DNA from: Kutzneria kofuensis
GTDB lineage: Bacteria; Actinomycetota; Actinomycetes; Mycobacteriales; Pseudonocardiaceae
Assembly: GCF_014203355.1 (NCBI RefSeq)
Contig: NZ_JACHIR010000001.1
Location: forward strand, 1,116,001-1,180,000
Length of the DNA: 64,000 nucleotides
Direction: 5' to 3'
The notes beneath the pieces are model-generated. The model was not told where the DNA came from, searched no databases, and saw only the letters and a program-made list of their open reading frames with translations. The position numbers and the translations under genes are program-made. Positions 2-11,949 of this stretch are shown in pieces. The first letter of the stretch is position 1. The number at the start of each line of letters is the position of its first letter.

Positions 2-223
2 GTGCGGCTGTGGTACTCGACCAACGACGGCGCCAGCTGGCAGCAGGCGGCCGTGAGCGGCGCCGGCGGTCACTACCAGGTTCGCGTCGCCGATCCGGCC
101 CGGGGCGCTCTCGGGACGACCGGGTTCGTGTCGCTCCGGGTGGAGGCGTCGGACCTGGCGGGCAACCGGATGAACCAGACCGTGCTGCGCGCCTACGCGC
201 TCACCGACAAGCCGGTCGAATGA
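2..223 (+). CDS. C-terminal end of a secreted S8-type (subtilisin-like) peptidase, partial
   Basis: Only the last 73 residues are in the window; the gene begins upstream. The reading frame is open from the first base. The pattern WYSTNDGASW, a basic/aromatic strand, then VSLRVEASDLAGN and a closing QTVLRAYAL stretch is what I know from the C-terminal beta-sandwich of large actinobacterial S8 peptidases of about 1,100-1,250 residues. No catalytic residues can be seen, so the family call rests on the tail alone. It runs convergently into a Streptomyces-type subtilisin inhibitor, which fits a protease/inhibitor pair, and two hairpins separate them. Another extracellular protein with a similar tail domain remains possible. 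Confidence 0.55.
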   Translation: MRLWYSTNDGASWQQAAVSGAGGHYQVRVADPARGALGTTGFVSLRVEASDLAGNRMNQTVLRAYALTDKPVE

Positions 224-363: not shown

Positions 364-795
364 TCACAGATCGAAGACGCTGCCGGTGCGCAGGCGCAGC
401 TTGCACTGGTTCGGGAACGTCTTCCGGTAGTCCACGGTCACCCCGTCCCACACCCCGGTGGCGCTGACGGTCACCGGGTCGTACAGGTCGCTTCCGGCCC
501 CGCACACCCCCTTCGCCGCGTCGCCGGGCAACCGGTCGAAGTCGCCCGCCGCGGCGGTGATGTCGCGGCATGCCGCCTCACCGTGCGGATGGTCCCCTCC
601 GACGGGATCGCACCGGAGCGTGCGAGCCTGTTTCCGCTCCTTGTCCCCGGCGCTCGTGACCGCCGTCAACTGCACATACTCCGTAAGGCTCTCCGTAAGG
701 CTCTGTCCGACCGCGAGCGGAACCGCACCAGCCGGCTGCTCCGCCATTACTCCACTCATGAGCACGATTGACGCAAACAAGAGTCGACACACCAT
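364..795 (-). CDS. Streptomyces subtilisin inhibitor (SSI)-like secreted protease inhibitor
   Basis: 143 residues. A short basic start plus a hydrophobic stretch (residues 2-18) reads as a signal peptide. The mature part has four Cys (near LRCDP, ACRDI, GVCGAG and NQCKL), which fits the two disulfides of the I16 SSI family, and the family end ...C...GSVF. The GVWDG and YDPV landmarks are in the expected order. In classical SSI the reactive bond precedes VYDPV. Here the loop reads CGAGSD-LYDPV, two residues longer, with Asp at the inferred P1 position, so the target protease may differ. I chose ATG 795 over the upstream TTG at 810 because GGGGAG sits about 7 nt before it. It is convergent with the protease remnant. 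Confidence 0.85.
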   Translation of the reverse strand: MVCRLLFASIVLMSGVMAEQPAGAVPLAVGQSLTESLTEYVQLTAVTSAGDKERKQARTLRCDPVGGDHPHGEAACRDITAAAGDFDRLPGDAAKGVCGAGSDLYDPVTVSATGVWDGVTVDYRKTFPNQCKLRLRTGSVFDL

Positions 796-1333
796 GCCAA
801 AACTCCCCAAACCTGTTCACCATCACGCCGGTATCCACGCCAGGAGCATCCGGAGCATCACCTCTTCGGCTGAGGTCCGCGCCTCTCGCACATCTTCACC
901 TGAACGGCCGGTCGAGGACCGCGGACGTCCACAGATCTGGTCACCGGGCGACTCGCGCACGCGGCTCACATGGCGCTTCCGCGCCACGTGTCAAATAATG
1001 GCATCCGCCGTCTATCACGGTGTGGCAACTGCCACCGCAAACGATCCGGCACCACCAGCCGCCGAACGGATGAACAATCGAAGCCGACGCGGTGACGGCC
1101 CGACATCGAACCACTACACCATTTCAGTGACAAATGCCCGACGTCATCACGACTTTCCGACATTCAACCACGTAGAATCGATTCAGCATGCGAACGTGAC
1201 ACCCAATCGCGTGGCGGCCCCCTGGTTAGTGGAGCGTGGACAGGGCAGCCTCATTTCCGTGACGACTCCAACGCTCAGCCGACCGCTCGGAGAGGACGCG
1301 CCAGGAGTACCCAGGCCGTCGGCGGATGCGAGC
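796..1333. other. Intergenic stretch, no gene recognised
   Basis: About 540 bases between the inhibitor start and the sigma-factor start. Codon-position bias is weak in all frames, and the part from about 1000 to 1200 is less GC-rich than its surroundings. It should hold the divergent promoters of both genes. I see no convincing operator. Confidence 0.4.
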
Positions 1334-1828
1334 ATGCCCACCCAGAAGCCTCCATCCTCCGCATACTGGATGGAATGCGCCCGAATACGTCAACAACTGG
1401 TCCGAGTGGCGGCACGACGATGCGTCGCACCCACCGAACCCGAGGACATCGTGCAGGAGGCGATCATCCGAGGCGCCGAGTTCGATCGACTGGACATGGA
1501 CCGTGTCCCCCAGTTCCTGACCAGACTGGTGACCCGCCTGTGCGTCGACGAGGCCCGTCACAATGCGGTCGTCAAGAAGATGGCAAGCCATCCCCGGCTC
1601 GTTCCGCAAAGCGCGGACGATCTCGTGGACGTCGTGTGCGACCACGCGGAGGCCCAGTGGCTCGCCTCCCGCCTGGAGGCATTTTCGCCGAAGGACCGGA
1701 AACTGGTTCTGATGTTGACGAGCGGATTCACCCGGAAGGAGATCGCCGAAGAACTCGGCACGACACCGCAGGGCACGCACTCCGCCCTCTACCGCATCCG
1801 CAAGAAGATGGTCGAGCGCTATGGCTGA
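1334..1828 (+). CDS. Sigma-70 family RNA polymerase sigma factor, ECF-like
   Basis: 164 residues from the chosen start. Region 2 is seen as EPEDIVQEAIIRGA followed by a helix ending VDEAR. Region 4 has the helix-turn-helix FTRKEIAEELGTTPQGTHSALYRIRKKM, where the first helix and the recognition helix are clear. The protein should direct core polymerase to a small set of promoters. No anti-sigma factor gene is next to it, unlike many ECF pairs; the following genes belong to a lanthipeptide locus on the other strand. The start is uncertain: ATG 1334 was chosen, but GTG 1259 (with a weak GGACAGGG upstream) and ATG 1370 are also in frame. The long open frame upstream of 1259 does not look coding. 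Confidence 0.75.
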   Translation: MPTQKPPSSAYWMECARIRQQLVRVAARRCVAPTEPEDIVQEAIIRGAEFDRLDMDRVPQFLTRLVTRLCVDEARHNAVVKKMASHPRLVPQSADDLVDVVCDHAEAQWLASRLEAFSPKDRKLVLMLTSGFTRKEIAEELGTTPQGTHSALYRIRKKMVERYG

Positions 1829-1841
1829 GGCGCCGCCGGCA

Positions 1842-2471
1842 CTACCCCTGACCCGGCGGGCCGGCGACCCGCAGCCCACGCAGGCCGTCGAGCAGCCACG
1901 CCGCCAGTTCCCCGGCCACCACGACCGAGTTTCCGTGATCGCCCAGGCCGGACACGCAGGTCGCGGCGGCCACCCCCGACAGCGGCGCGCTCACAGTCAG
2001 GATAAGGGCGAGATGCCAACCGCGGGAGGCCAATCTGACCACGGCGCCCATCGACGCCGCGCCGGCCAGCAGGAGCTCGATCAGCAGCAGCGCGGAGCCC
2101 GTGTGCCCCATCGGCGTCCAGGTCCCCGGGTCGGGCGGCATGAGCCGCCGTTGCTCGGCGACCCCCAGTTCGAGCATCTCCCGAACCGGGCGGTCGCCCC
2201 GCCCCGGCAGGCCGTCGCCGTCGCGGTGGGCCAGCGTGAAGTCCCGGACGGCGTCCGCGGCCAGCGACAGCACGGCCGCGGCCAGCATCGAGACGATCGC
2301 GAACGCGGTGCCACGACCGATGAGCGCGGCGTCGAGACCGCCGACGAGCATCGCGGGCGACACCGCCGCGGCGACGGCCGGGAGCGCGTCACCGACACGG
2401 ACGATCAGCGGCAGGCCAGGGGCCGACAGTGCCAAGGGACCGAGCAGACCGCCAAGCGGTCGGCGGAACAT
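1842..2471 (-). CDS. Small multi-pass membrane protein of unknown function, lanthipeptide locus
   Basis: 209 residues with about four hydrophobic segments (near residues 18-50, 58-75, 125-150 and 155-170) separated by a charged loop rich in Arg/Asp. I do not recognise a family. A good ribosome-binding site (GGAGG, 6 nt before ATG 2471) supports the start. It is the last gene of a minus-strand set of LanKC, precursor peptide and this protein, and lies 38 nt beyond a strong hairpin after the precursor, so its expression may be reduced by partial termination. Its position suggests export of, or immunity to, the peptide. That is inference only, because it has no ATP-binding cassette and no protease motif. 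Its 3' end almost touches the sigma-factor gene on the other strand. Confidence 0.6.
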   Translation of the reverse strand: MFRRPLGGLLGPLALSAPGLPLIVRVGDALPAVAAAVSPAMLVGGLDAALIGRGTAFAIVSMLAAAVLSLAADAVRDFTLAHRDGDGLPGRGDRPVREMLELGVAEQRRLMPPDPGTWTPMGHTGSALLLIELLLAGAASMGAVVRLASRGWHLALILTVSAPLSGVAAATCVSGLGDHGNSVVVAGELAAWLLDGLRGLRVAGPPGQG

Positions 2472-2578: not shown

Positions 2579-2713
2579 CTACAGGCACACCCCGCCACCC
2601 AGGATCACCGAGATCCAGATGTGGTCGCACCCATGGCCGCACCCGTGGTCGCACGGGTCGCCGCAGCACCCCGGCGCCGACTCGAGCCCCTGAAGGGCGA
2701 GCACGTTCTCCAT
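2579..2713 (-). CDS. Candidate class III lanthipeptide precursor, Cys/His-rich core (44 residues)
   Basis: Short gene found by eye downstream of LanKC. The leader reads MENVLALQGLE, matching the hydrophobic-x-x-LQ helix that class III synthetases recognise. The following 33 residues hold six Cys (16, 17, 21, 25, 29, 43), three His (23, 27, 31) in a repeated CDHGCGHGCDH block, and then a hydrophobic end with IWIS and GGGVCL. Only two Ser (12, 35) and no Thr are present, so at most one or two lanthionine-type rings are possible, for example Ser35 to Cys43 or to one of the upstream Cys. That is unlike SapB-type cores, which are Ser-rich. A strong RBS (GAAGGAGA, 7 nt before ATG) supports translation. 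Hairpins lie on both sides. It may be a metal-binding or disulfide-bearing peptide rather than a standard lanthipeptide. Confidence 0.75.
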   Translation of the reverse strand: MENVLALQGLESAPGCCGDPCDHGCGHGCDHIWISVILGGGVCL

Positions 2714-2744
2714 CTGTTGTCTCCTTCGTCGAATCGGAAATCCG

Positions 2745-2812: not shown

Positions 2813-5401
2813 CTAGAGGAACGGCAGCAGCGTGCCTTCGCCGCCGCCGGCCAGGGTCATCGCGCGCAGCACGCCCGCTCCGCCCGTCGCGAAGTCCATC
2901 GACAGGCGCAGCGAGTGGCTGCCCGGAAACGCCAGCGCGCCCAGGTAGTGGGTGCCGTGCAGGGAGAGCAGGAGGGTCCGATGGCGGTGCAGGGCCCGCT
3001 CGGTGTCGGCGTCCGCGCCACGGCGCAGCAGAACCGCCAACGCGCCGAGCATGCCGGCCCGTCCCGAGAACAGCCCGGCCTCGGACACGAACTCGGCCCC
3101 GCACGACCGTTCCAGCACCGGCAGGTCCGGCGCGCACGCCGCCTCGGGCAGGTAGCTGACGATCATGTCGCCGACGAGTGCGAAGCCGGCCGAGCCCGCG
3201 GCGAGGCTCGACGACGGGCGCCGGCCCACCGGCACGGGCGCCGATCCGTCGGATCCGTAGCCGCAGATGGCGAGATCACGGCACAGCGCCTGTTCCGCCA
3301 GCCGCAGCCAGGACCGGTCCAGCGTGTACTCGTACAGGCGCAGGAAGAACAACGCCGGTCCGGTCCAGCCGCGCAGCAGCCCGACGGCGGCGTGCGGGCG
3401 CGGCCTCGTCTCGGCGAGCTGCTCCGCCAGCCGCTCGCCGATGGCCATCGCGTCGGCGGCGAGCGCCGCGTCCCGCCAGGTCCGGCCCAGGTGCAGAAGG
3501 TTGAGGCCGATGCCGGCGAGCCCGCCGCCGAGCCCGTGGTCGCGGCCGGCGAGGACCAGCGGCACCGCCGCCTCCACCAGCGCCGCCGCCTCCGTCCGGT
3601 GACCGAGGAAGTCCAGCACGAAGGCGACGCCGTGGGCACCGTCGTAGAAGCCCGCACGCCGAACCGGTTCCCGGCGCACCGCGTCCAGCAGCCACTGCTC
3701 GTACTGGGGATGACGGCCGCCGCCGCTGACCGCGATCGTGTGCAGCACGCCGGCCGCGCCGTAGGCGAAGCACGTGCCGCCGAGCGAGAACTGCTCGATG
3801 TCGCCGGGGAACAACCGGTCCTGCCGCTCCGGCGTCGCACTCGCCCTGATCGCCTCGACCACGGAGTCGCGCAGCGCCGTCCAGCAGAATTCGGGCAGGG
3901 CGGCGCCGCCCTGCACGGCCTCGGCCACCATGCAACCGGGGTCGTTCGGTTCGCACGCGTCCGCGACCGGCGCCGGGGGCAGCGCGGCCTGGTTCGGGTC
4001 GAGTTCGGCGAGTATCTCCTCGACGTAGCCCGCGGGCACCGGAAACCGTCGCCGGACGAAGTCACCGTGGGTTCGCAGCTTCGCGGGAGCCAGCGCGGTC
4101 AGGGTGGTCATCGGCAGGAACATCCACAGCCGCAACGCCGCGAGCGCGTAGTCGTCGATGGCGAAACCCGTGCGGTCGGCCGGGGCGCCGAAGCCGGGCG
4201 CCCCGAACGCCGGCCGGCGTTGCCGGACGCCGATGTCGAAGGCCAGCTCGAAGTCCACCAGCGACACGGAGTCGTCGATGTCGACCAGGATGTTGCCCGG
4301 ATGCAGGTCGGCGAAGACGATGCCCCGGTCGTGGATGTCGGACAGCAGCCGCGCGACTCCCGACAGCACGTGCAGTGCCCGCCGGGTGTACGAGCGCAGC
4401 TCGTGTGAGGATGCCTCACGTTGTTGGCACGGGTACTCGTCGACCAGCCACTGGGCCAGGCTCCGCCCCGGTATGTGCTGCATCACCAGGAAGTCGTGCT
4501 CCCACATGGCCAGGTAGTCCCGCAGCTCCGGCACGCCGTCGATGCCCGCGAGGCGCTCGAGCATCCGGCCCTCGTGGTAGAGCCGGTGCACCGCGTCCGT
4601 GCCGTCCCACTCCATGGCGGCCAGTGGCCGCGCCTCCTTCAGCACGACCAGGTCGCCGCCGTCGGCCGGCCGGGCCAGGTAGACGCCGCCGGCGTTGGAG
4701 AAGTGCAGTGCCTGCTCCACGTGGTACGGGTAGTCGACCGTCGCCGCCCCCCGGCGCACATCGAGCTGGGGTAACAGGATCGCGGGCAGCGGCACCCAGT
4801 CCGGGGGGCGGAACAGGGGTTCACGCCGGTCGGGCACCAGCCTTCCGTCGGGTCTGCGCAGGGCCGGCACCGGCCGGCCCGACTCGTCGGACGTCCACAG
4901 CTCGACGAAGGCTCCGTAGCGCACGTACAGCGGCCCCTCGCCGTAACGCAGGTCGGACAGGATGTACGGGCCGCGTTCCCCGACCAGCGCCAGCGAGAGA
5001 TCGACGAGGATCCGGCCCAGCTCCCGCTCGTCGACCGGGTAGATCGTGATGAACTTCCCGCTCGAGGAGCGCGGCGCGTACTTCGAGTTCCGCGCCACCA
5101 AGGCGTTCTTGCTGGTGATGAACTTGAACGGCACGCCACGCGGCAGGCAGTAGTCCGCCACCGTCGCGAGCACTCGCGCCGCGTTCTTGGGCACGGCCGA
5201 GACGTGCACCTTCCAGCCCTGCTCGGGCCCGCTGTGCTCGGCGGGGCGCAGGACGGACCAGACACCGGATCGAGAACGCTCCCATCCGGGCGGGCAGGAA
5301 CCCGCCGGCACATCGAACGAGTCGCCGTCACCACCCCAGTTCGCCGGGGTTTCGTAGAACTGCGGATCCTCAAGGCAGAAAGCCTCGTAGCGCATATCCA
5401 T
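2813..5401 (-). CDS. lanKC: Class III lanthionine synthetase, LanKC type
   Basis: 862 residues, normal for the family. Order: N-terminal phosphoSer/Thr lyase region (about 1-220), Ser/Thr-kinase-like domain (about 235-470), and LanC-like cyclase region (about 500-862). Kinase residues are visible: Lys255 in VVLKEAR, Asp365 and Asn370 in FADLHPGNILV, and the metal-site Asp383 in VDFELAF (DFG replaced by DFE). The cyclase part lacks the Cys-Cys-His zinc ligands of class I/IV enzymes, which is why I call class III. It phosphorylates and eliminates Ser/Thr of a precursor and forms (methyl)lanthionine or labionin rings in the cytoplasm. Its obvious partner is the 44-residue peptide gene 99 nt downstream. 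No dedicated ABC transporter or leader peptidase lies nearby. Confidence 0.92.
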   Translation of the reverse strand: MDMRYEAFCLEDPQFYETPANWGGDGDSFDVPAGSCPPGWERSRSGVWSVLRPAEHSGPEQGWKVHVSAVPKNAARVLATVADYCLPRGVPFKFITSKNALVARNSKYAPRSSSGKFITIYPVDERELGRILVDLSLALVGERGPYILSDLRYGEGPLYVRYGAFVELWTSDESGRPVPALRRPDGRLVPDRREPLFRPPDWVPLPAILLPQLDVRRGAATVDYPYHVEQALHFSNAGGVYLARPADGGDLVVLKEARPLAAMEWDGTDAVHRLYHEGRMLERLAGIDGVPELRDYLAMWEHDFLVMQHIPGRSLAQWLVDEYPCQQREASSHELRSYTRRALHVLSGVARLLSDIHDRGIVFADLHPGNILVDIDDSVSLVDFELAFDIGVRQRRPAFGAPGFGAPADRTGFAIDDYALAALRLWMFLPMTTLTALAPAKLRTHGDFVRRRFPVPAGYVEEILAELDPNQAALPPAPVADACEPNDPGCMVAEAVQGGAALPEFCWTALRDSVVEAIRASATPERQDRLFPGDIEQFSLGGTCFAYGAAGVLHTIAVSGGGRHPQYEQWLLDAVRREPVRRAGFYDGAHGVAFVLDFLGHRTEAAALVEAAVPLVLAGRDHGLGGGLAGIGLNLLHLGRTWRDAALAADAMAIGERLAEQLAETRPRPHAAVGLLRGWTGPALFFLRLYEYTLDRSWLRLAEQALCRDLAICGYGSDGSAPVPVGRRPSSSLAAGSAGFALVGDMIVSYLPEAACAPDLPVLERSCGAEFVSEAGLFSGRAGMLGALAVLLRRGADADTERALHRHRTLLLSLHGTHYLGALAFPGSHSLRLSMDFATGGAGVLRAMTLAGGGEGTLLPFL

Positions 5402-6206: not shown

Positions 6207-7070
6207 ATGAACAAGAAATGGGCGGCGGCCCTGGTCACGGGCGCCACCGACGGCATCGGCTGCGCCGTGGCGCACCGACTGGCGGGTCTGGTCGACACCC
6301 TCCTGATACACGGCCGGTACCCGACCAGCCTGATGGAGCTGGCGGCGTCGCTGGCGCCCGCCAACCCGGGGACGACGATCATCCCGCTCAAGGCCGACCT
6401 GGCCAGCCTCGCCGAGGTCCGCTACATGATCAATCGGGTGTGCGGCAGCCTGGACCGGCTCGACATCCTCGTCAACAACGCGGCCACCGCCGGCATCTAC
6501 CCGAGAACGCTGTCCGGTGACGGGCACGAGATGACGCTCCAGGTGAACTACCTCGCCCCGGTGATGCTCACCGCCGGCCTGTTCCCACTGCTCACCACCC
6601 CCGCGCCGAGCCGGATCGTCAACGTGGTCTGCAGTCCCCAGCGCAACGTCAAGCTGCGCTGGCACGACATGTCGCTGGAACACCGCTACCACCCGGTGAC
6701 GGCCTACGCCCAGTCCAAGCTGGCGCTCACGCTGCACACCGCCGGCCTGGCCGACATCCTGGCCGACAGTTCGTGCAGCGCCGTGTCCGTCGACCCCGGA
6801 ACGGCGGACACGAAGCTGCACCGCCGGGCGTTCGGCTGGCCGGCCGGGCCCGTCGCGGCCGCCGCGGACTGCGTGCTGTACGCCATCACGGCGTCCACCG
6901 GCGTCAAGGGTTCCTACTTCGAACAAAAGCTGCGGACCGAGCCTCCGGCCGAACACTCGAGTCCGCATGTCCAGCGGCACCTTGACCGGATCACGGCTAA
7001 CATGCTGAACATCCACCTGCCTTGGGTCGACATGGTCTACAGCCCCTTGACGAAGACATCCGCGAGCTGA
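6207..7070 (+). CDS. Short-chain dehydrogenase/reductase (SDR)
   Basis: 287 residues. Rossmann motif TGATDGIG near residues 11-18, NNA motif (LVNNAATAG) near 90, and the catalytic pair in YAQSK near residues 170-174. The usual catalytic Ser position is occupied by the VVCSPQ segment. It should carry out NAD(P)H-dependent carbonyl or enone reduction, or the reverse oxidation, in the cytosol. It resembles retinol-dehydrogenase/protochlorophyllide-reductase-like classical SDRs. It lies between the lanthipeptide synthetase and the regulator of the type II PKS and could serve either system; the sequence does not decide. ATG 6207 was preferred over GTG 6174 because GAGGTGG lies about 10 nt upstream and the TGxxxGIG motif then starts at the usual distance. 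Confidence 0.8.
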   Translation: MNKKWAAALVTGATDGIGCAVAHRLAGLVDTLLIHGRYPTSLMELAASLAPANPGTTIIPLKADLASLAEVRYMINRVCGSLDRLDILVNNAATAGIYPRTLSGDGHEMTLQVNYLAPVMLTAGLFPLLTTPAPSRIVNVVCSPQRNVKLRWHDMSLEHRYHPVTAYAQSKLALTLHTAGLADILADSSCSAVSVDPGTADTKLHRRAFGWPAGPVAAAADCVLYAITASTGVKGSYFEQKLRTEPPAEHSSPHVQRHLDRITANMLNIHLPWVDMVYSPLTKTSAS

Positions 7071-7296: not shown

Positions 7297-8325
7297 ATGC
7301 TCGAGATTGTTGGCCTCGATGCCACCGCCGAGGCGGTGTACGAAGCACTCGTAGACAACCCACCGCTGACGGTTGAAGAGGTGAGCGGCACTACCACCCT
7401 GGACCGAACACGCGTCCACGACGCGCTGAACACGTTGGAGGACAATGGACTGGTCATGCGCACCGAGGGGAACTCACAGGTGTTCACCGCGACTCCCCCC
7501 GACGTCGCGCTCGAGGTGCTGCTGCTGGAACAGCAGGAGCGGATCAAGCGCACCCGGCTGTTCATGGAGCAGCTGGCCGCCCGGTACCGCCGCGCGGCGG
7601 CCGGCCGCAATCCCGCCGACCTGATCGAGGTGATCTCCGGCCGGCACGCGGTCGCCCAGCGCGTCGAGCAGATCCTGCGCAGCACCAGCACCGAGGTCCG
7701 CTTCATCGACAAGCAGCCCTATGTGATAGCCCCGGAGATGCTGGCTCCCGTCGAGGCGGAGATGCTGCGCCGGGGCGTTCCCTACCGCGGCCTCTACGAT
7801 CCGGTCGGACTGTCCACTCGCGACATCCAGACCGAGATCGAACCCGCGATCGCCCAGGGGGAGCAGGCGCGGGTACTGGCGGAGGCGCCCATCAAGCTGA
7901 TCCTGGCCGACCGGCGGCTCGCGCTGCTGCCGCTGCGATCCGATCCGCACGCGATCGAGTCGGTGCTGGTCGTGCACCCGTCCGCGCTGCTGGAGGCGTT
8001 GGACGCGCTGTTCGAGACCCTCTGGCGCACCGCACTGCCGCTGCCGCCGGTCGGCGGCAAGGTCGCCGACGAGGCCCACGGGCTGCCGCAGGAGGACGCC
8101 CGCCTCGTCGCCCTGCTGACCGCGGGCCTGCCGGACCGGATCATCGCCCGCCAGCTGGGCCTGTCCTACCGGACCTTCCAGCGCCGGATCGGCGGTCTGC
8201 TGGAACGGCTGGGGGTTCGCACCCGTTTCCAGGCCGGCCTGCAGGCGTCCTTCCGCGGGCTGGTCCCGCCGCCGGACGAGCACGCCGACCCGAAGCCGAC
8301 GCCGCAGGAATCGCCCCGGCAGTGA
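7297..8325 (+). CDS. Transcriptional regulator, TrmB-type N-terminal HTH plus LuxR-type C-terminal HTH
   Basis: 342 residues. The N-terminus (LDATAEAVYEALVDNPPLT...) is a winged-helix domain of the TrmB/MarR kind (about residues 5-70). A middle region of about 170 residues resembles the phospholipase-D-like sensor part of actinobacterial TrmB regulators. The C-terminus (LLTAGLPDRIIARQLGLSYR, then FQRRIGGLLERLGVRTR) is a LuxR-type helix-turn-helix at about residues 268-325. Such two-HTH regulators are common next to RiPP and polyketide clusters. It reads into a coupled small ORF and then the minimal PKS, so it probably controls those genes or the lanthipeptide genes. ATG 7297 was chosen because the winged helix begins there; the frame is open back to 7183. 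Confidence 0.8.
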   Translation: MLEIVGLDATAEAVYEALVDNPPLTVEEVSGTTTLDRTRVHDALNTLEDNGLVMRTEGNSQVFTATPPDVALEVLLLEQQERIKRTRLFMEQLAARYRRAAAGRNPADLIEVISGRHAVAQRVEQILRSTSTEVRFIDKQPYVIAPEMLAPVEAEMLRRGVPYRGLYDPVGLSTRDIQTEIEPAIAQGEQARVLAEAPIKLILADRRLALLPLRSDPHAIESVLVVHPSALLEALDALFETLWRTALPLPPVGGKVADEAHGLPQEDARLVALLTAGLPDRIIARQLGLSYRTFQRRIGGLLERLGVRTRFQAGLQASFRGLVPPPDEHADPKPTPQESPRQ

Positions 8326-8564
8326 CGGCGGTGGCGAGCATCGCTCATGATCGGCGGCGGGGCCGGGGGCCACCCAGATGGCCACCTGTGCCGGCCGGCG
8401 CGCCGATGCAGACTTGCTCCATCACGACCGGCATGCGGTCGCTTCTTCAGCAGAACTCGTCCGGCTCCTCCAGGCACTGGAACGCGTGGCCGGACGCCGA
8501 CATGAGTCAGGACGACGAGTTGACCGTGCGCGCAACGGACACCGCGCGAGGTGATGCCGCGTGA
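8322..8564 (+). CDS. Small ORF coupled to both neighbours (80 residues), unknown
   Basis: The GTG start at 8322 overlaps the regulator stop (GTGA), and its stop overlaps the GTG of KS-alpha at 8561 (GTGA again). Such double overlap is typical of translationally coupled operon genes. From an internal ATG (8406) onward the third codon positions are strongly G/C-biased. The first 28 residues are Arg/Pro-rich. The rest starts MQTCSITTGMRSLLQQNSSG and ends in an acidic tail, with no known domain. I do not recognise it. It may be a real 52-residue protein starting at 8406, a coupling ORF, or chance. Confidence 0.4.
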   Translation: MTAVASIAHDRRRGRGPPRWPPVPAGAPMQTCSITTGMRSLLQQNSSGSSRHWNAWPDADMSQDDELTVRATDTARGDAA

Positions 8565-9844
8565 CGAGGCGAGTGGTGATCACCGGCATGGGAGTGACCG
8601 CTCCCGGCGGTGTCGGGGTTCCCGCGTTCTGGGAACTGTTGACCACCGGGCGGCCGATGACCCGGGCGATCACCCTGTTCGATGCCACGCCGTTCCGGTC
8701 CCGCATCGCGGCGGAGTGCGACCTGCACCCGGCCGCGCATGGCGTGAACAGCCGGGACACCCGCTGGCTGGACCGCTACCTCCAGTTCGCCACCACCGCC
8801 ACCACCGAGGCGCTGCGCGGTTCGGGGCTCAACGCGGTCGAGGAGGACGAGTGGCGGGTCGGCGTGGTGATGGGCACCGCGCTGGGCTCGGCGGCCCTGC
8901 TGGAGCAGAACTACGTGGTGATGAGCGACGGTGGCGCCAAATGGGAACTGGACCACCAGTACGGCTCGCCGCATCTGCACCTGGCGTGGACGCCGAGCAT
9001 GCTCGGCGCGGAGATCGCCCGGCTCTGCGGCGCCCGCGGCCCGGTGCACACGGTGTCGAGCGGCTGCACGGCCGGGATCGACGCGGTCGGCTACGCCGCC
9101 CAGCTCATCCTGGACGGCGACGCCGACGTGGTGGTGGCCGGCGGCGCCGAGGCGCCGATATCGCCCGCGACCGTCGGCAGCTTCGACGCGATCGGGGTGA
9201 CGTCGTCGCGCAACGACGATCCCGAGCACTCCTGCCGCCCGTTCGACCGGGACCGCGACGGCTTCGTCCTCGGTGAGGGCGCCGCCGTCCTGGTCCTCGA
9301 GGAGCTCCGGCACGCGATCCGGCGCGGCGCGACCGTGCTGTGCGAGGTCGCCGGCTACGCCACGCTGAGCAGCGCGCACCACATGACCGGGTTGACCACC
9401 GACGGCCGGGTGCTCGCGGTGGCCATCACGCAGGTGCTCAACCAGGCCCGCCTGGGCCCCACGGAGATCGACTACATCAGCGCGAACGGCACCGGGACCC
9501 GGCAGAACGACCGGCACGAGACCAACGCGGTCAAGCTGGCCCTCGGGCAGAGCGCGTACTCGGTGCCCATGAGCTCGATCAAGTCCATGGTCGGGCACTC
9601 GCTCGGCGCCAGCGGGGCGATCGAGCTGGTCGCGTCCGCGCTGGCCATCGAACGCGGCGCGGTGCCGCCGACGGCCAACCTCACGGCGCCCGACCCCGAG
9701 TGCGATCTGGACTACGTCCCCGACACGGCCCGCGAGCACCGCGTCGACGTCGCGCTGTCGCTGGGCAGCGGGTTCGGCGGGTTCCAGTCCGCGATGGCCT
9801 TGCGCCGCCTCGATTCGGGCCTCGTGGAAACGAGCAGGCCGTGA
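8561..9844 (+). CDS. Type II polyketide ketosynthase alpha (KS-alpha)
   Basis: 427 residues, the usual length. The active-site Cys169 sits in VSSGCTAGIDAVGYA. Lys341 and His346 are in SSIKSMVGHSLGA. At 309, where actinorhodin KS has His in NAHGSGT, this protein has Asn (ISANGTGT). It forms the heterodimer with CLF that builds the poly-beta-keto chain from malonyl-ACP. The N-terminus (MTRRVVITGMGVTAPGG) and the gene order KS, CLF, ACP, aromatase most resemble spore-pigment (whiE-like) sets. No malonyl transferase is present, as is normal for type II systems, which borrow FabD. The start is GTG, coupled to the preceding small ORF. The product cannot be inferred beyond an aromatic polyketide. 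Confidence 0.93.
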   Translation: MTRRVVITGMGVTAPGGVGVPAFWELLTTGRPMTRAITLFDATPFRSRIAAECDLHPAAHGVNSRDTRWLDRYLQFATTATTEALRGSGLNAVEEDEWRVGVVMGTALGSAALLEQNYVVMSDGGAKWELDHQYGSPHLHLAWTPSMLGAEIARLCGARGPVHTVSSGCTAGIDAVGYAAQLILDGDADVVVAGGAEAPISPATVGSFDAIGVTSSRNDDPEHSCRPFDRDRDGFVLGEGAAVLVLEELRHAIRRGATVLCEVAGYATLSSAHHMTGLTTDGRVLAVAITQVLNQARLGPTEIDYISANGTGTRQNDRHETNAVKLALGQSAYSVPMSSIKSMVGHSLGASGAIELVASALAIERGAVPPTANLTAPDPECDLDYVPDTAREHRVDVALSLGSGFGGFQSAMALRRLDSGLVETSRP

Positions 9845-9886
9845 CCGAGCTTGCGAGGGAACCATTCAGCACTGCGACCGTGGTCG

Positions 9887-9924
9887 CGGACCTTCGTGCT
9901 CCGAGCGTTAGCGAGGAAGGTCCG
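9887..9924 (+). promoter_or_regulatory. RNA hairpin covering the CLF ribosome-binding site
   Basis: CGGACCTTC (9887-9895) pairs perfectly with GAAGGTCCG (9916-9924). The right arm contains the GGAAGG ribosome-binding site and the first base of the CLF GTG. A smaller stem (9874-9878 with 9883-9887) precedes it. Translation of CLF may therefore need the structure to be opened. Confidence 0.5.
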
Positions 9925-11135
9925 TGACCTCTGCGGCCGTGATCACCGGGGTCGGCCCGGTCGCGCCGGGCGGCGTCGGCACGACGGAGTTCTGGCGGGC
10001 CATCTGCGCGGGCCGCAACCAGTTGGCCCGGATCACCCGGTTCGACCCCGAGAACAACCCGGTCACCGTCGCCGGCGAGGTCGGGTTCGACCCCGGCGAG
10101 CTGATCGAGAACCGGTACCTGGTGCAGACCGACCGGGCCACCCAGCTCGGTCTGGCCGCCGCCGACCTCGCGATGGCCGACGCCCTGTTCTCGCCGCCGG
10201 CGCTCAATCCCTTCGCCGCCGGCGTGATCACCAGCAGCTGCGTCGGCGGCGCCGAGTCCGCGCAGCGCGCGCTGGGCACGCTGTGGAACTGCGGCCCGCA
10301 CCACGTCAGCCCGTACCAGTCGTTCGCGCCGAGCCATGCGGCGACGACCGGACAGGTGTCGGTCCGCGACACCATGAAGGGGCCGTGCGGAGTCCTCGTC
10401 ACCGACGAGGCCGGCGGGCTCGACGCGCTGGCGCACGCCCGGCGGGCCATCCGGCGCGGCGCCCGGATCATGATCGCGGGCGCTGCCGAGGCGCCGCTGT
10501 GTCCGTACGCGTTGGCGCCGCAGTACTCCGCGCGGATGCTCAGCGAGTCGGCCGATCCCGACGCCGCCTATCTCCCGTTCTCCCACGGCGCGAGCGGTTA
10601 CGCGCCGGCCGAGGGAGCCGCCATGTTCGTGGTGGAGTCGGCGGCCGACGCGGCCGAGCGGGGCAGCCGGCCCCGGGCCGTGATCGCCGGGCACGGCTCG
10701 ACCTTCAGCGCGGTCGCCGCCTTCGACCCGTCGGGCGAGGGGCTGGCGATGGCCTGCCGCAAGGCCCTCGCGGCGGCCGGCCGCCGGCCGGAGGACATCG
10801 ACGTCGTCTTCGCCGACGCGACCGCCGTCCCCACGGCCGACCGCGCCGAGGTCACCGTGATCAAGTCGCTGGTCGGCACGAAGGTCCCGGTGACCGCGCC
10901 CAAGGCCGGCTTCGGCCGGGCCTACGCCGGCGCCTCCGCGCTGGACGCCGCGGCCGCCGTGCTCAGCCTCGACCACGGGATCATCCCGCCGATCCCGGTG
11001 CTCGCCGAGCCGATCGACGACCTCGACTTCGTCGTCGGCGCCCCGCGCCGGGCCGAGTTGCGCACCGCGCTCGTGCTCGCCCGCGGGTACGGCGGCATGA
11101 ACTCCGCACTCGTCTTGCACCGCCCGGATCACTGA
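9924..11135 (+). CDS. Type II polyketide chain length factor (CLF, KS-beta)
   Basis: 403 residues. Same thiolase fold as KS-alpha but without the active-site Cys: the site reads LVTDEAGGLDALAHARR. CLFs usually have Gln in the EQAGG motif (Gln161 in the actinorhodin protein); here it is Glu162. The CLF pairs with KS-alpha, primes by decarboxylation and sets chain length. It begins 80 nt after KS-alpha, unlike the usual overlapping KS/CLF junction, and its GGAAGG RBS is inside a hairpin. The ACP follows after 67 nt, so the genes form one operon. Confidence 0.92.
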   Translation: MTSAAVITGVGPVAPGGVGTTEFWRAICAGRNQLARITRFDPENNPVTVAGEVGFDPGELIENRYLVQTDRATQLGLAAADLAMADALFSPPALNPFAAGVITSSCVGGAESAQRALGTLWNCGPHHVSPYQSFAPSHAATTGQVSVRDTMKGPCGVLVTDEAGGLDALAHARRAIRRGARIMIAGAAEAPLCPYALAPQYSARMLSESADPDAAYLPFSHGASGYAPAEGAAMFVVESAADAAERGSRPRAVIAGHGSTFSAVAAFDPSGEGLAMACRKALAAAGRRPEDIDVVFADATAVPTADRAEVTVIKSLVGTKVPVTAPKAGFGRAYAGASALDAAAAVLSLDHGIIPPIPVLAEPIDDLDFVVGAPRRAELRTALVLARGYGGMNSALVLHRPDH

Positions 11136-11202
11136 CGTCGTCGGCGACCTCCGGTCGCGTCCACCCGCGGTGCCCGCAACCCACCTGCGAAGGCGTTGAA
11201 CC

Positions 11203-11466
11203 ATGTCCTCGATCCCCGAGCTGACCTACCAGGAACTCGCGTCGGTCATCCTCAAGCGCGTCGGCATCACGGTGAACGTGCACCGGTTGAGCCACCGCCT
11301 GACGACGTTCGCGGACATCGGGGTGGATTCCCTCGGCCTGCTCGCCGTCGTCCGCGAGCTGGAGCACCGCCGCCGGGTCGACCTGGGCGCGACGGCGGCG
11401 CAGGACTGCCTGACACCCCGCCAGCTCATGACGCGCCTGCGCGAGGCCCAGAACGGCATGGTGTGA
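11203..11466 (+). CDS. Type II polyketide acyl carrier protein
   Basis: 87 residues. The phosphopantetheine site is Ser43 in the GVDSLGLLAVV motif. It carries the growing polyketide as a thioester for the KS-alpha/CLF pair. The RBS (GAAGG) lies before ATG 11203. The aromatase gene starts 3 nt after its stop, so the two are translated together. Confidence 0.92.
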   Translation: MSSIPELTYQELASVILKRVGITVNVHRLSHRLTTFADIGVDSLGLLAVVRELEHRRRVDLGATAAQDCLTPRQLMTRLREAQNGMV

Positions 11467-11469
11467 CCG

Positions 11470-11949
11470 GTGGCGGCGCACGTCGAGACCGAGGTCCTGA
11501 TCGGCGCGCCGGTGGACCTCACCTGGCGGCTGGCCAACGACATCGGGCACTGGCCCGACCTGTTCGGCGAGTACGCGTCGGTGCGACTGCTGCACCGCGA
11601 CGGCGCCGCGTCCCGGTTCCGGCTCACCGCACCGCCCGACGCCCGGGGCCGGGTGCTCACCTGGATCCTCGAGCAGATCAGCGACCCGACGCGCCGGACG
11701 GTGCACGCCCGGCGCGTCGGGCCGGGGCCGCTCGGGCAGCTGTCGGTCCGGTGGTGCTGCATTGGCATCGGCGGTATGGCGACACGCCTGCGTTGGATCC
11801 AGGACTTCGCGACGCGGCCGGACAGCCCGATCGACGACGCGGCGATGATGTCGCACCTGGACTTCGGCTCGAGCACGCGGCTGGATCGGCTGCGCCGCCG
11901 GGTCGAGTCGGTGGCTCGCGCCGAGCGGCTGGCCGGGGGCGCCGGGTGA
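11470..11949 (+). CDS. Polyketide aromatase/cyclase, SRPBCC (START-like) fold
   Basis: 159 residues. The opening HVETEVLIGAPVDLTWRLANDIGHWPDLFGEY is split by me as the family's beta-1 strand followed by a helix and the WPDLFGEY landmark. The family tail RWIQDF...APVDDAAM is present as RWIQDFATRPDSPIDDAAM. It matches the TcmN N-terminal domain/WhiE-ORFVI type that folds and aromatises the first ring of the ACP-bound chain. The downstream HxNxNSR segment is diverged (SHLDFGSSTR). No ketoreductase, second cyclase or oxygenase follows, so a short unreduced aromatic product or a decayed pathway is possible. GTG 11470 is the start, right after the ACP stop. Confidence 0.85.
   Translation: MAAHVETEVLIGAPVDLTWRLANDIGHWPDLFGEYASVRLLHRDGAASRFRLTAPPDARGRVLTWILEQISDPTRRTVHARRVGPGPLGQLSVRWCCIGIGGMATRLRWIQDFATRPDSPIDDAAMMSHLDFGSSTRLDRLRRRVESVARAERLAGGAG

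What the first reader, a model, noticed from the sequence alone, without database searches (positions are those of the whole stretch)
2579..2713. Cys/His-rich class III lanthipeptide candidate with almost no Ser/Thr
A 44-codon gene with a strong RBS has the LQ-type leader of class III precursors, but its core has six Cys and three His in a CDHGCGHGCDH block and only one or two Ser. At most one or two thioether rings can form, leaving four or more Cys free for disulfides or metal. This differs from SapB/labyrinthopeptin-type cores.
Basis: partly seen in the sequence, partly recalled or inferred. Interest (0 to 1): 0.8.

Follow-up and report, generated by a model that had tools for sequence, protein, structure and literature searches.

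The report
Cysteine-histidine-repeat peptide beside LanKC enzyme
A soil bacterium (Kutzneria) makes a small peptide rich in cysteine and histidine that is almost certainly the substrate of a neighbouring lanthipeptide-making enzyme, but it has almost none of the serines that enzyme normally uses, and its gene cluster has a protease and protease inhibitor in place of the usual exporter, so the product is probably unlike known lanthipeptides.

Summary
The ORF is real and as described, except that it lies on the minus strand (ATG at 2713, stop at 2579): MENVLALQGLESAPGCCGDPCDHGCGHGCDHIWISVILGGGVCL. It is conserved in four Kutzneria genomes. The block from residue 13 is almost invariant (all six Cys and Ser35 fixed; dN 0-0.03). 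It sits 100 bp downstream of a full-length class III synthetase, LanKC (2813-5401, -), whose tested catalytic motifs are intact.

The broader finding concerns the LanKC. It belongs to a clade (five Kutzneria genomes plus four of a second Pseudonocardiaceae genus; SH-aLRT 96) whose precursors all lack the SxxSxxxC class III core. These loci also lack the ABC exporter found in 14 of 15 other LanKC loci; Kutzneria keeps only a 209-aa transmembrane remnant. They share a cassette absent from those 15: secreted subtilase, SSI-type subtilisin inhibitor, ECF sigma factor, short-chain dehydrogenase and TrmB/LuxR-type regulator.

Ser12 is not conserved, so at most one thioether is expected, most simply Ser35-Cys43. 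The other five Cys include four tandem tetrapeptides (CGDP-CDHG-CGHG-CDHI), a candidate metal or disulfide region. Chemistry and activity are inferred, not shown.

The parts
2579..2713 (-). LanA-like precursor gene, 44 aa, MENVLALQGLESAPGCCGDPCDHGCGHGCDHIWISVILGGGVCL
   Evidence: translation; conserved in four Kutzneria genomes next to LanKC, low dN
2720..2727 (-). ribosome-binding site GAAGGAGA of the precursor gene
   Evidence: read from the sequence; GAAGGAGA or its core kept in all four Kutzneria sequences
2618..2665 (-). four tandem 12-bp units encoding CGDP-CDHG-CGHG-CDHI (residues 17-32), the Cys/His repeat
   Evidence: read from the sequence
2609..2611 (-). Ser35 codon, the only invariant Ser; predicted dehydration site
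   Evidence: alignment A2; function inferred
2585..2587 (-). Cys43 codon, the only Cys after Ser35; predicted thioether partner
   Evidence: alignment A2; function inferred
2813..5401 (-). class III lanthionine synthetase LanKC (lyase-kinase-cyclase), 862 aa
   Evidence: NF038151 955.8 bits, cut-off 575; RamC_N, Pkinase, LANC_like; tested catalytic motifs intact
1842..2471 (-). 209-aa membrane protein, truncated relative of the transmembrane domain of the ABC exporter that follows LanKC in typical clusters
   Evidence: phmmer E 3e-9 to an ABC transporter downstream of a typical LanKC, which matches ABC_membrane and ABC_tran; dN/dS about 0.25-0.56 in Kutzneria
1334..1828 (+). ECF sigma factor
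   Evidence: TIGR02937 above cut-off, Sigma70_r2 and r4_2; relatives in all 8 clade loci
364..810 (-). SSI-type subtilisin inhibitor, secreted
   Evidence: PF00720 SSI 84 bits; relatives in all 8 clade loci
2..223 (+). 3' end of a 1345-aa secreted subtilase (whole gene G000:C1:1112186-1116223, outside the window)
   Evidence: PF00082 Peptidase_S8 204 bits; relatives in all 8 clade loci
6207..7070 (+). short-chain dehydrogenase/reductase, divergently transcribed from LanKC
   Evidence: PF00106 80 bits; relatives in all 8 clade loci
7297..8325 (+). TrmB-type regulator with a C-terminal region weakly like LuxR HTH
   Evidence: PF01978 TrmB 50 bits; relatives in all 8 clade loci

Best explanation
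The ORF is the precursor peptide of a divergent class III (LanKC) system. Shown: a conserved 44-aa gene with an LxLQ-type leader lies just downstream of an intact LanKC in four Kutzneria genomes; that LanKC falls in a clade whose precursors lack the SxxSxxxC core and whose loci lack the class III ABC exporter but share a subtilase/SSI/ECF sigma/SDR/TrmB-regulator cassette. Inferred: LanKC binds the MENVLALQGL leader, phosphorylates and eliminates Ser35 to Dha, and at most one thioether follows, most simply Dha35-Cys43 (S-x7-C), closing the hydrophobic C-terminal tail. The five other Cys with His27, His31 and usually His23 stay as a side-chain cluster (CGDP-CDHG-CGHG-CDHI) that binds a soft metal or forms disulfides. 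The secreted subtilase, held in check by the SSI inhibitor, removes the leader outside the cell; export uses an unlinked route. The ECF sigma factor and TrmB-type protein control expression.
For: Gene and conservation. LanKC identity and intact lyase (K63/H65 in WKVH, K93, K107, K116, D150, R161), kinase (VVLKEA, DLHPGN, DFE) motifs: judged against ThurKC residues in PMC10604976. LxLQ leader as LanKC recognition element: PMC10206099, PMC10604976. Leader half scores on NF038154 over residues 1-14, below cut-off. Clade. Cassette 8/8 clade loci against 0/15 others. Exporter 0/8 against 14/15. Precedent for S8 proteases removing class III leaders (AmyP): PMC10885120. Precedent for a copper-binding class III peptide (noursin): PMC10206099.
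Against: No mass, structure or expression data. The Ser35-Cys43 ring is not possible in the syntenic relative (G004, C only before T) nor in the second genus (no Cys after the C-terminal Ser), so the ring may not be the conserved feature. A near-invariant Tyr in the cyclase domain (41 of 42 others) is replaced by Ser, Gly or His in the whole clade, so cyclization may be altered. The class III cyclase region of this clade was not modelled. His23 is Asn in K. buriramensis. No metal-transport gene was seen in the parts of the neighbourhood I annotated. Subtilase and SSI could serve another purpose.
Confidence: 0.5

Rival explanations
1. The conserved reaction is not the ordinary ring: LanKC makes a reversed crosslink, in which a Cys (or His) lying N-terminal to the dehydrated Ser/Thr attacks it, for example Cys29 or His31 onto Dha35.
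For: In G004 (CGDDHGDIWVWLTIKV) and the second genus (CC or CxxC ... SDDYxYSSE) every Cys precedes the C-terminal Ser/Thr, so this is the only thioether geometry open to that Ser/Thr. Clade-wide loss of the cyclase Tyr. His as nucleophile has a precedent in noursin.
Against: Kutzneria does have Cys43 after Ser35. In noursin His lies after the Thr, not before, and its LanKC is a separate subgroup. G004 also has TTS before its Cys, which would allow an ordinary S-x3-C ring.
Confidence: 0.2
2. LanKC only dehydrates Ser35 (or only phosphorylates it), and the product is a linear Dha- or phospho-peptide with a Cys/His metal site.
For: One invariant Ser only; cyclase-domain divergence in the clade; cyclase Ala variants of ThurKC can dehydrate without cyclizing (PMC10604976).
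Against: Lyase and kinase motifs are intact. Free Dha beside six thiols in one peptide would be expected to react.
Confidence: 0.15
3. The peptide is a metal-chelating or redox peptide (metallothionein- or metallophore-like) and the thioether is incidental.
For: CxxxC spacing four times, with His and Asp in the repeats; the Cys/His block is better conserved than the leader; noursin shows that a class III peptide can bind copper.
Against: No metal transporter, chaperone or metal-responsive regulator was recognised among the cassette genes; relatives in the clade have only one to three Cys; His/Gly-rich spacers are common in Pseudonocardiaceae class III precursors that have ordinary cores.
Confidence: 0.3
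4. It is a decayed SapB-type system: the exporter is lost, the core has lost its Ser, and the peptide is a vestige.
For: Exporter reduced to a 209-aa remnant; LanKC broken by indels in the strain 744 assembly.
Against: Core dN is near zero over four species, LanKC is under purifying selection, the six-gene cassette is kept in two genera, and the strain 744 indels cluster in a stretch that looks like assembly error.
Confidence: 0.05

Closest known systems
SapB/AmfS-type class III lanthipeptides (NF033212, NF038154, NF038159)
   Same: LanKC synthetase, short precursor with LxLQ leader directly downstream of LanKC
   Different: no SxxSxxxC core, no curated precursor model reached, no ABC exporter pair, extra subtilase/SSI/sigma/SDR/TrmB cassette
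Noursin and LanKC_Hbt (PMC10206099)
   Same: class III precursor with a role for His; copper binding is the precedent for a metal-binding class III peptide
   Different: noursin core has three Ser/Thr, one Cys and one His with labionin and histidinobutyrine; here six Cys, three His, one conserved Ser and no Thr; the nor cluster has an S9 peptidase and a transporter
Class III systems matured by S8 proteases (AmyP, cited in PMC10885120)
   Same: an S8 protease goes with a class III precursor
   Different: AmyP is from Bacillus and recognises (T/S/A)EVE; here a 1345-aa secreted actinobacterial subtilase with an adjacent SSI inhibitor, cleavage site unknown
ThurKC (andalusicin synthetase, PDB 8sao/8sap/8sam)
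   Same: domain order and catalytic lyase and kinase residues
   Different: actinobacterial; substrate with one conserved Ser rather than many Ser/Thr

Membership tests
Class III lanthipeptide system | LanKC with lyase, kinase and LanC-like domains | tested here: met
   NF038151 955.8 bits against cut-off 575; RamC_N, Pkinase, LANC_like
Class III lanthipeptide system | catalytic lyase and kinase residues present | tested here: met
   all ten motifs checked are intact, residues as in ThurKC
Class III lanthipeptide system | precursor with LxLQ-type leader next to LanKC | tested here: met
   MENVLALQGL, 100 bp downstream in four species
SapB/AmfS family precursor (NF033212; NF038154/38159) | match to a curated precursor model | tested here: not met
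   NF038154 15.6 bits, cut-off 22, leader only; relatives of the clade match none, two ordinary precursors match NF033212
SapB/AmfS family precursor (NF033212; NF038154/38159) | SxxSx(2-5)C core motif | tested here: not met
   absent here and in all clade precursors, present in 68 of 71 other loci with a called precursor
SapB/AmfS family precursor (NF033212; NF038154/38159) | clustered ABC exporter | tested here: not met
   none in the window's first 20 kb, in 16.6 kb upstream, or in the 8 clade loci; 14 of 15 others have it
Lanthipeptide (chemical definition) | lanthionine, methyllanthionine or labionin in the product | not testable with these tools
   needs mass spectrometry or NMR
Noursin / LanKC_Hbt | Thr plus downstream His in the core for histidinobutyrine | tested here: not met
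   no Thr and no His after Ser35; the enzyme subgroup itself was not compared by sequence

The most novel reading that the evidence does not exclude
A separate branch of LanKC enzymes has left the Ser-rich lanthipeptide plan and acts on Cys/His-repeat peptides, giving a metal- or redox-active peptide with at most one, possibly reversed, crosslink, matured outside the cell by a subtilase with its own inhibitor instead of through the usual exporter.
Probability: 0.25. Interest if true: 0.75.

Novelty: new variant of a known kind. Interest (0 to 1): 0.58.

Why it matters
LanKC enzymes are studied as makers of lanthionine and labionin rings in Ser-rich peptides. Here a LanKC clade is tied, in two genera, to precursors without that core and to a different set of partner genes. 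Testing one 44-aa peptide with one enzyme would show whether LanKC chemistry extends to Cys/His-rich, metal-binding or reversed-ring peptides, and whether an SSI-subtilase pair can serve as a maturation switch for a RiPP.

Tried and rejected
Plus-strand reading of 2579-2713: an open but meaningless frame. A different precursor nearby: none with an LxLQ leader downstream of LanKC other than this ORF. Loss of LanKC activity: rejected, motifs intact. A wider family of this peptide: none credible in 390 family genomes beyond the four Kutzneria, nor in 395 class-wide genomes; other hits were weak matches inside larger frames. LanKC clade outside Pseudonocardiaceae: the best class-wide hits (about 654 bits) are no closer than ordinary LanKCs. 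An unlinked close copy of the exporter in the genome: best 36% identity, no clear orthologue. A copper link by homology to noursin: precursor features not met. Literature with LanKC plus Kutzneria, or lanthipeptide plus subtilisin inhibitor, gave nothing on this system. Structure prediction and fold search were not run, since LanKC has solved relatives and a 44-aa peptide would not give a reliable model.

Full report
Observation. The ORF at 2579-2713 is on the minus strand and encodes MENVLALQGLESAPGCCGDPCDHGCGHGCDHIWISVILGGGVCL. A GAAGGAGA ribosome-binding site lies 6 nt before the ATG. The residue counts in the finding are right: six Cys, three His, two Ser, no Thr.

Not chance. The same ORF lies about 100 bp downstream of LanKC in Kutzneria buriramensis, Kutzneria sp. 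CA-103260 and Kutzneria sp. 744 and is 91-95% identical. The reading frame has no indel although the flanking intergenic DNA does. Over residues 13-44, pairwise dN is 0-0.03 and dS 0.05-0.26. The Cys/His part and tail are better conserved than the leader half. Invariant: all six Cys, Ser35, His27, His31. Variable: Ser12 (Ala in strain 744) and His23 (Asn in K. buriramensis). The numbers of changes are small, so these rates are rough.

Enzyme. 2813-5401 (-) is a class III synthetase: NF038151 955.8 bits against a cut-off of 575, class IV model well below its own cut-off; RamC_N, Pkinase and LANC_like domains. The residues that the ThurKC study found important in the lyase and kinase (PMC10604976) are present here by motif. 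The LanKC cyclase lacks zinc ligands as a rule, so that is no anomaly. One near-invariant cyclase residue, the Tyr of the LPYL motif (41 of 42 other LanKCs), is Ser, Gly or His in all members of the clade below; by alignment it is close to the site of a zinc ligand in other cyclases, but I did not check this on a structure.

The clade. A tree of 50 LanKCs puts the window's LanKC with those of Kutzneria G001, G006 and G004 and four genomes of a second, unnamed Pseudonocardiaceae genus, on one side of a branch with SH-aLRT 96 (quick search, no bootstrap; strain 744 was left out because its LanKC is broken in the assembly). Their precursors are all atypical: G004 has MDHVLSLQGLTTSAPACGDDHGDIWVWLTIKV; the second genus has 64-68-aa peptides such as MNLILSLQGLEVETSDDMPDLGAGARTCCGGDTDGTGQHGPSAYRSLGPDHTPPQTESDDYSYSSETV. 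None has SxxSx(2-5)C. Of 71 other loci where I could call a precursor, 68 have that motif; in 12 more I called none. The highest Cys to Ser/Thr ratio among those is 0.6; in Kutzneria it is 3 to 6. Across the nine clade peptides the leader aligns well and Cys17 is invariant; the rest aligns only loosely, so I treat similarities such as CDHIWIS, GDIWVWLT and SDDYIYSS as suggestive only.

Repeat. Residues 17-32 are four tandem tetrapeptides, CGDP-CDHG-CGHG-CDHI, encoded by 12-bp units. G004 has the shorter CGDDHGDIW, which fits growth of the repeat in the other Kutzneria, or its loss in G004. His/Gly-rich spacers before the core are common in this family, so the His and Gly have a plausible ordinary origin; the Cys do not.

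Neighbourhood. All eight clade loci examined (four Kutzneria relatives including strain 744 and G004, four of the second genus) carry relatives of six genes found around the window's LanKC: secreted S8 subtilase, SSI-type inhibitor, ECF sigma factor, LanKC, short-chain dehydrogenase and TrmB-type regulator. Fifteen other LanKC loci (12 with roughly 5-8 kb flanks, 3 with 5 kb) carry none of these except LanKC, apart from one weak subtilase match (30% over 354 aa). Fourteen of those fifteen have an ABC exporter beside LanKC; the eight clade loci and the window have none. The 209-aa membrane protein at 1842-2471 resembles part of the transmembrane half of that exporter (phmmer E 3e-9; the exporter matches ABC_membrane and ABC_tran) and has no Pfam match itself. 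The window genome has no clear orthologue of the exporter elsewhere (best 36%).

Mechanism. Shown: conserved gene, LanKC linkage, intact dehydratase motifs, cassette. Inferred: Ser35 is dehydrated; at most one thioether forms, most simply to Cys43; the remaining Cys/His make a metal or disulfide site; the subtilase, restrained by the SSI protein, removes the leader. S8 proteases do remove some class III leaders (AmyP; PMC10885120), and AmyP's (T/S/A)EVE motif recalls LEVE in the second genus, but Kutzneria has LES, so this is only a hint. Export is unexplained. The main difficulty is that the relatives' Cys precede their C-terminal Ser/Thr, which leaves open a reversed crosslink, or no ring.

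Known kinds. It is a class III system by enzyme and leader, and fails the SapB/AmfS precursor tests (model, core motif, exporter). It is not noursin-like by precursor. Searches of the held literature found no description of it. Supplementary files of the large mining study (PMC7268733) could not be read, so the precursor may be listed there. Novelty: new variant of a known kind.

Noticed in passing
window 8561-11949: A type II polyketide synthase set (ketosynthase, chain-length factor, ACP, cyclase) next to the lanthipeptide cassette; conserved in three other Kutzneria but absent from the syntenic G004 locus and the second genus, so probably a separate cluster.
   Followed up: partly
L009 5001-7597: LanKC of Kutzneria sp. 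744 has several frame-breaking indels and an odd AAAAAA replacement; probably assembly error rather than a real pseudogene.
   Followed up: partly
L107 (G032, second genus): Another LanKC precursor with a CCSCC block, MNHILDLQLMTADTQNQLDISCCSCCSTPSLFLCTKPSSASLILCH, but with an ordinary Ser-rich core.
   Followed up: no
L113 and L115: Two precursors beside more distant LanKCs also have their Cys before the Ser/Thr...AETCPSSKSVVIIVTQR and ...DGNCISWYSIAITRN.
   Followed up: no
G000:C3:20509-22371 (L002): A second kinase-cyclase gene (33% identical to LanKC) with a nearby short ORF MEFSLDLDALQQLPAAEAGTITPECTWTCSWTGVTTY, perhaps class IV.
   Followed up: no
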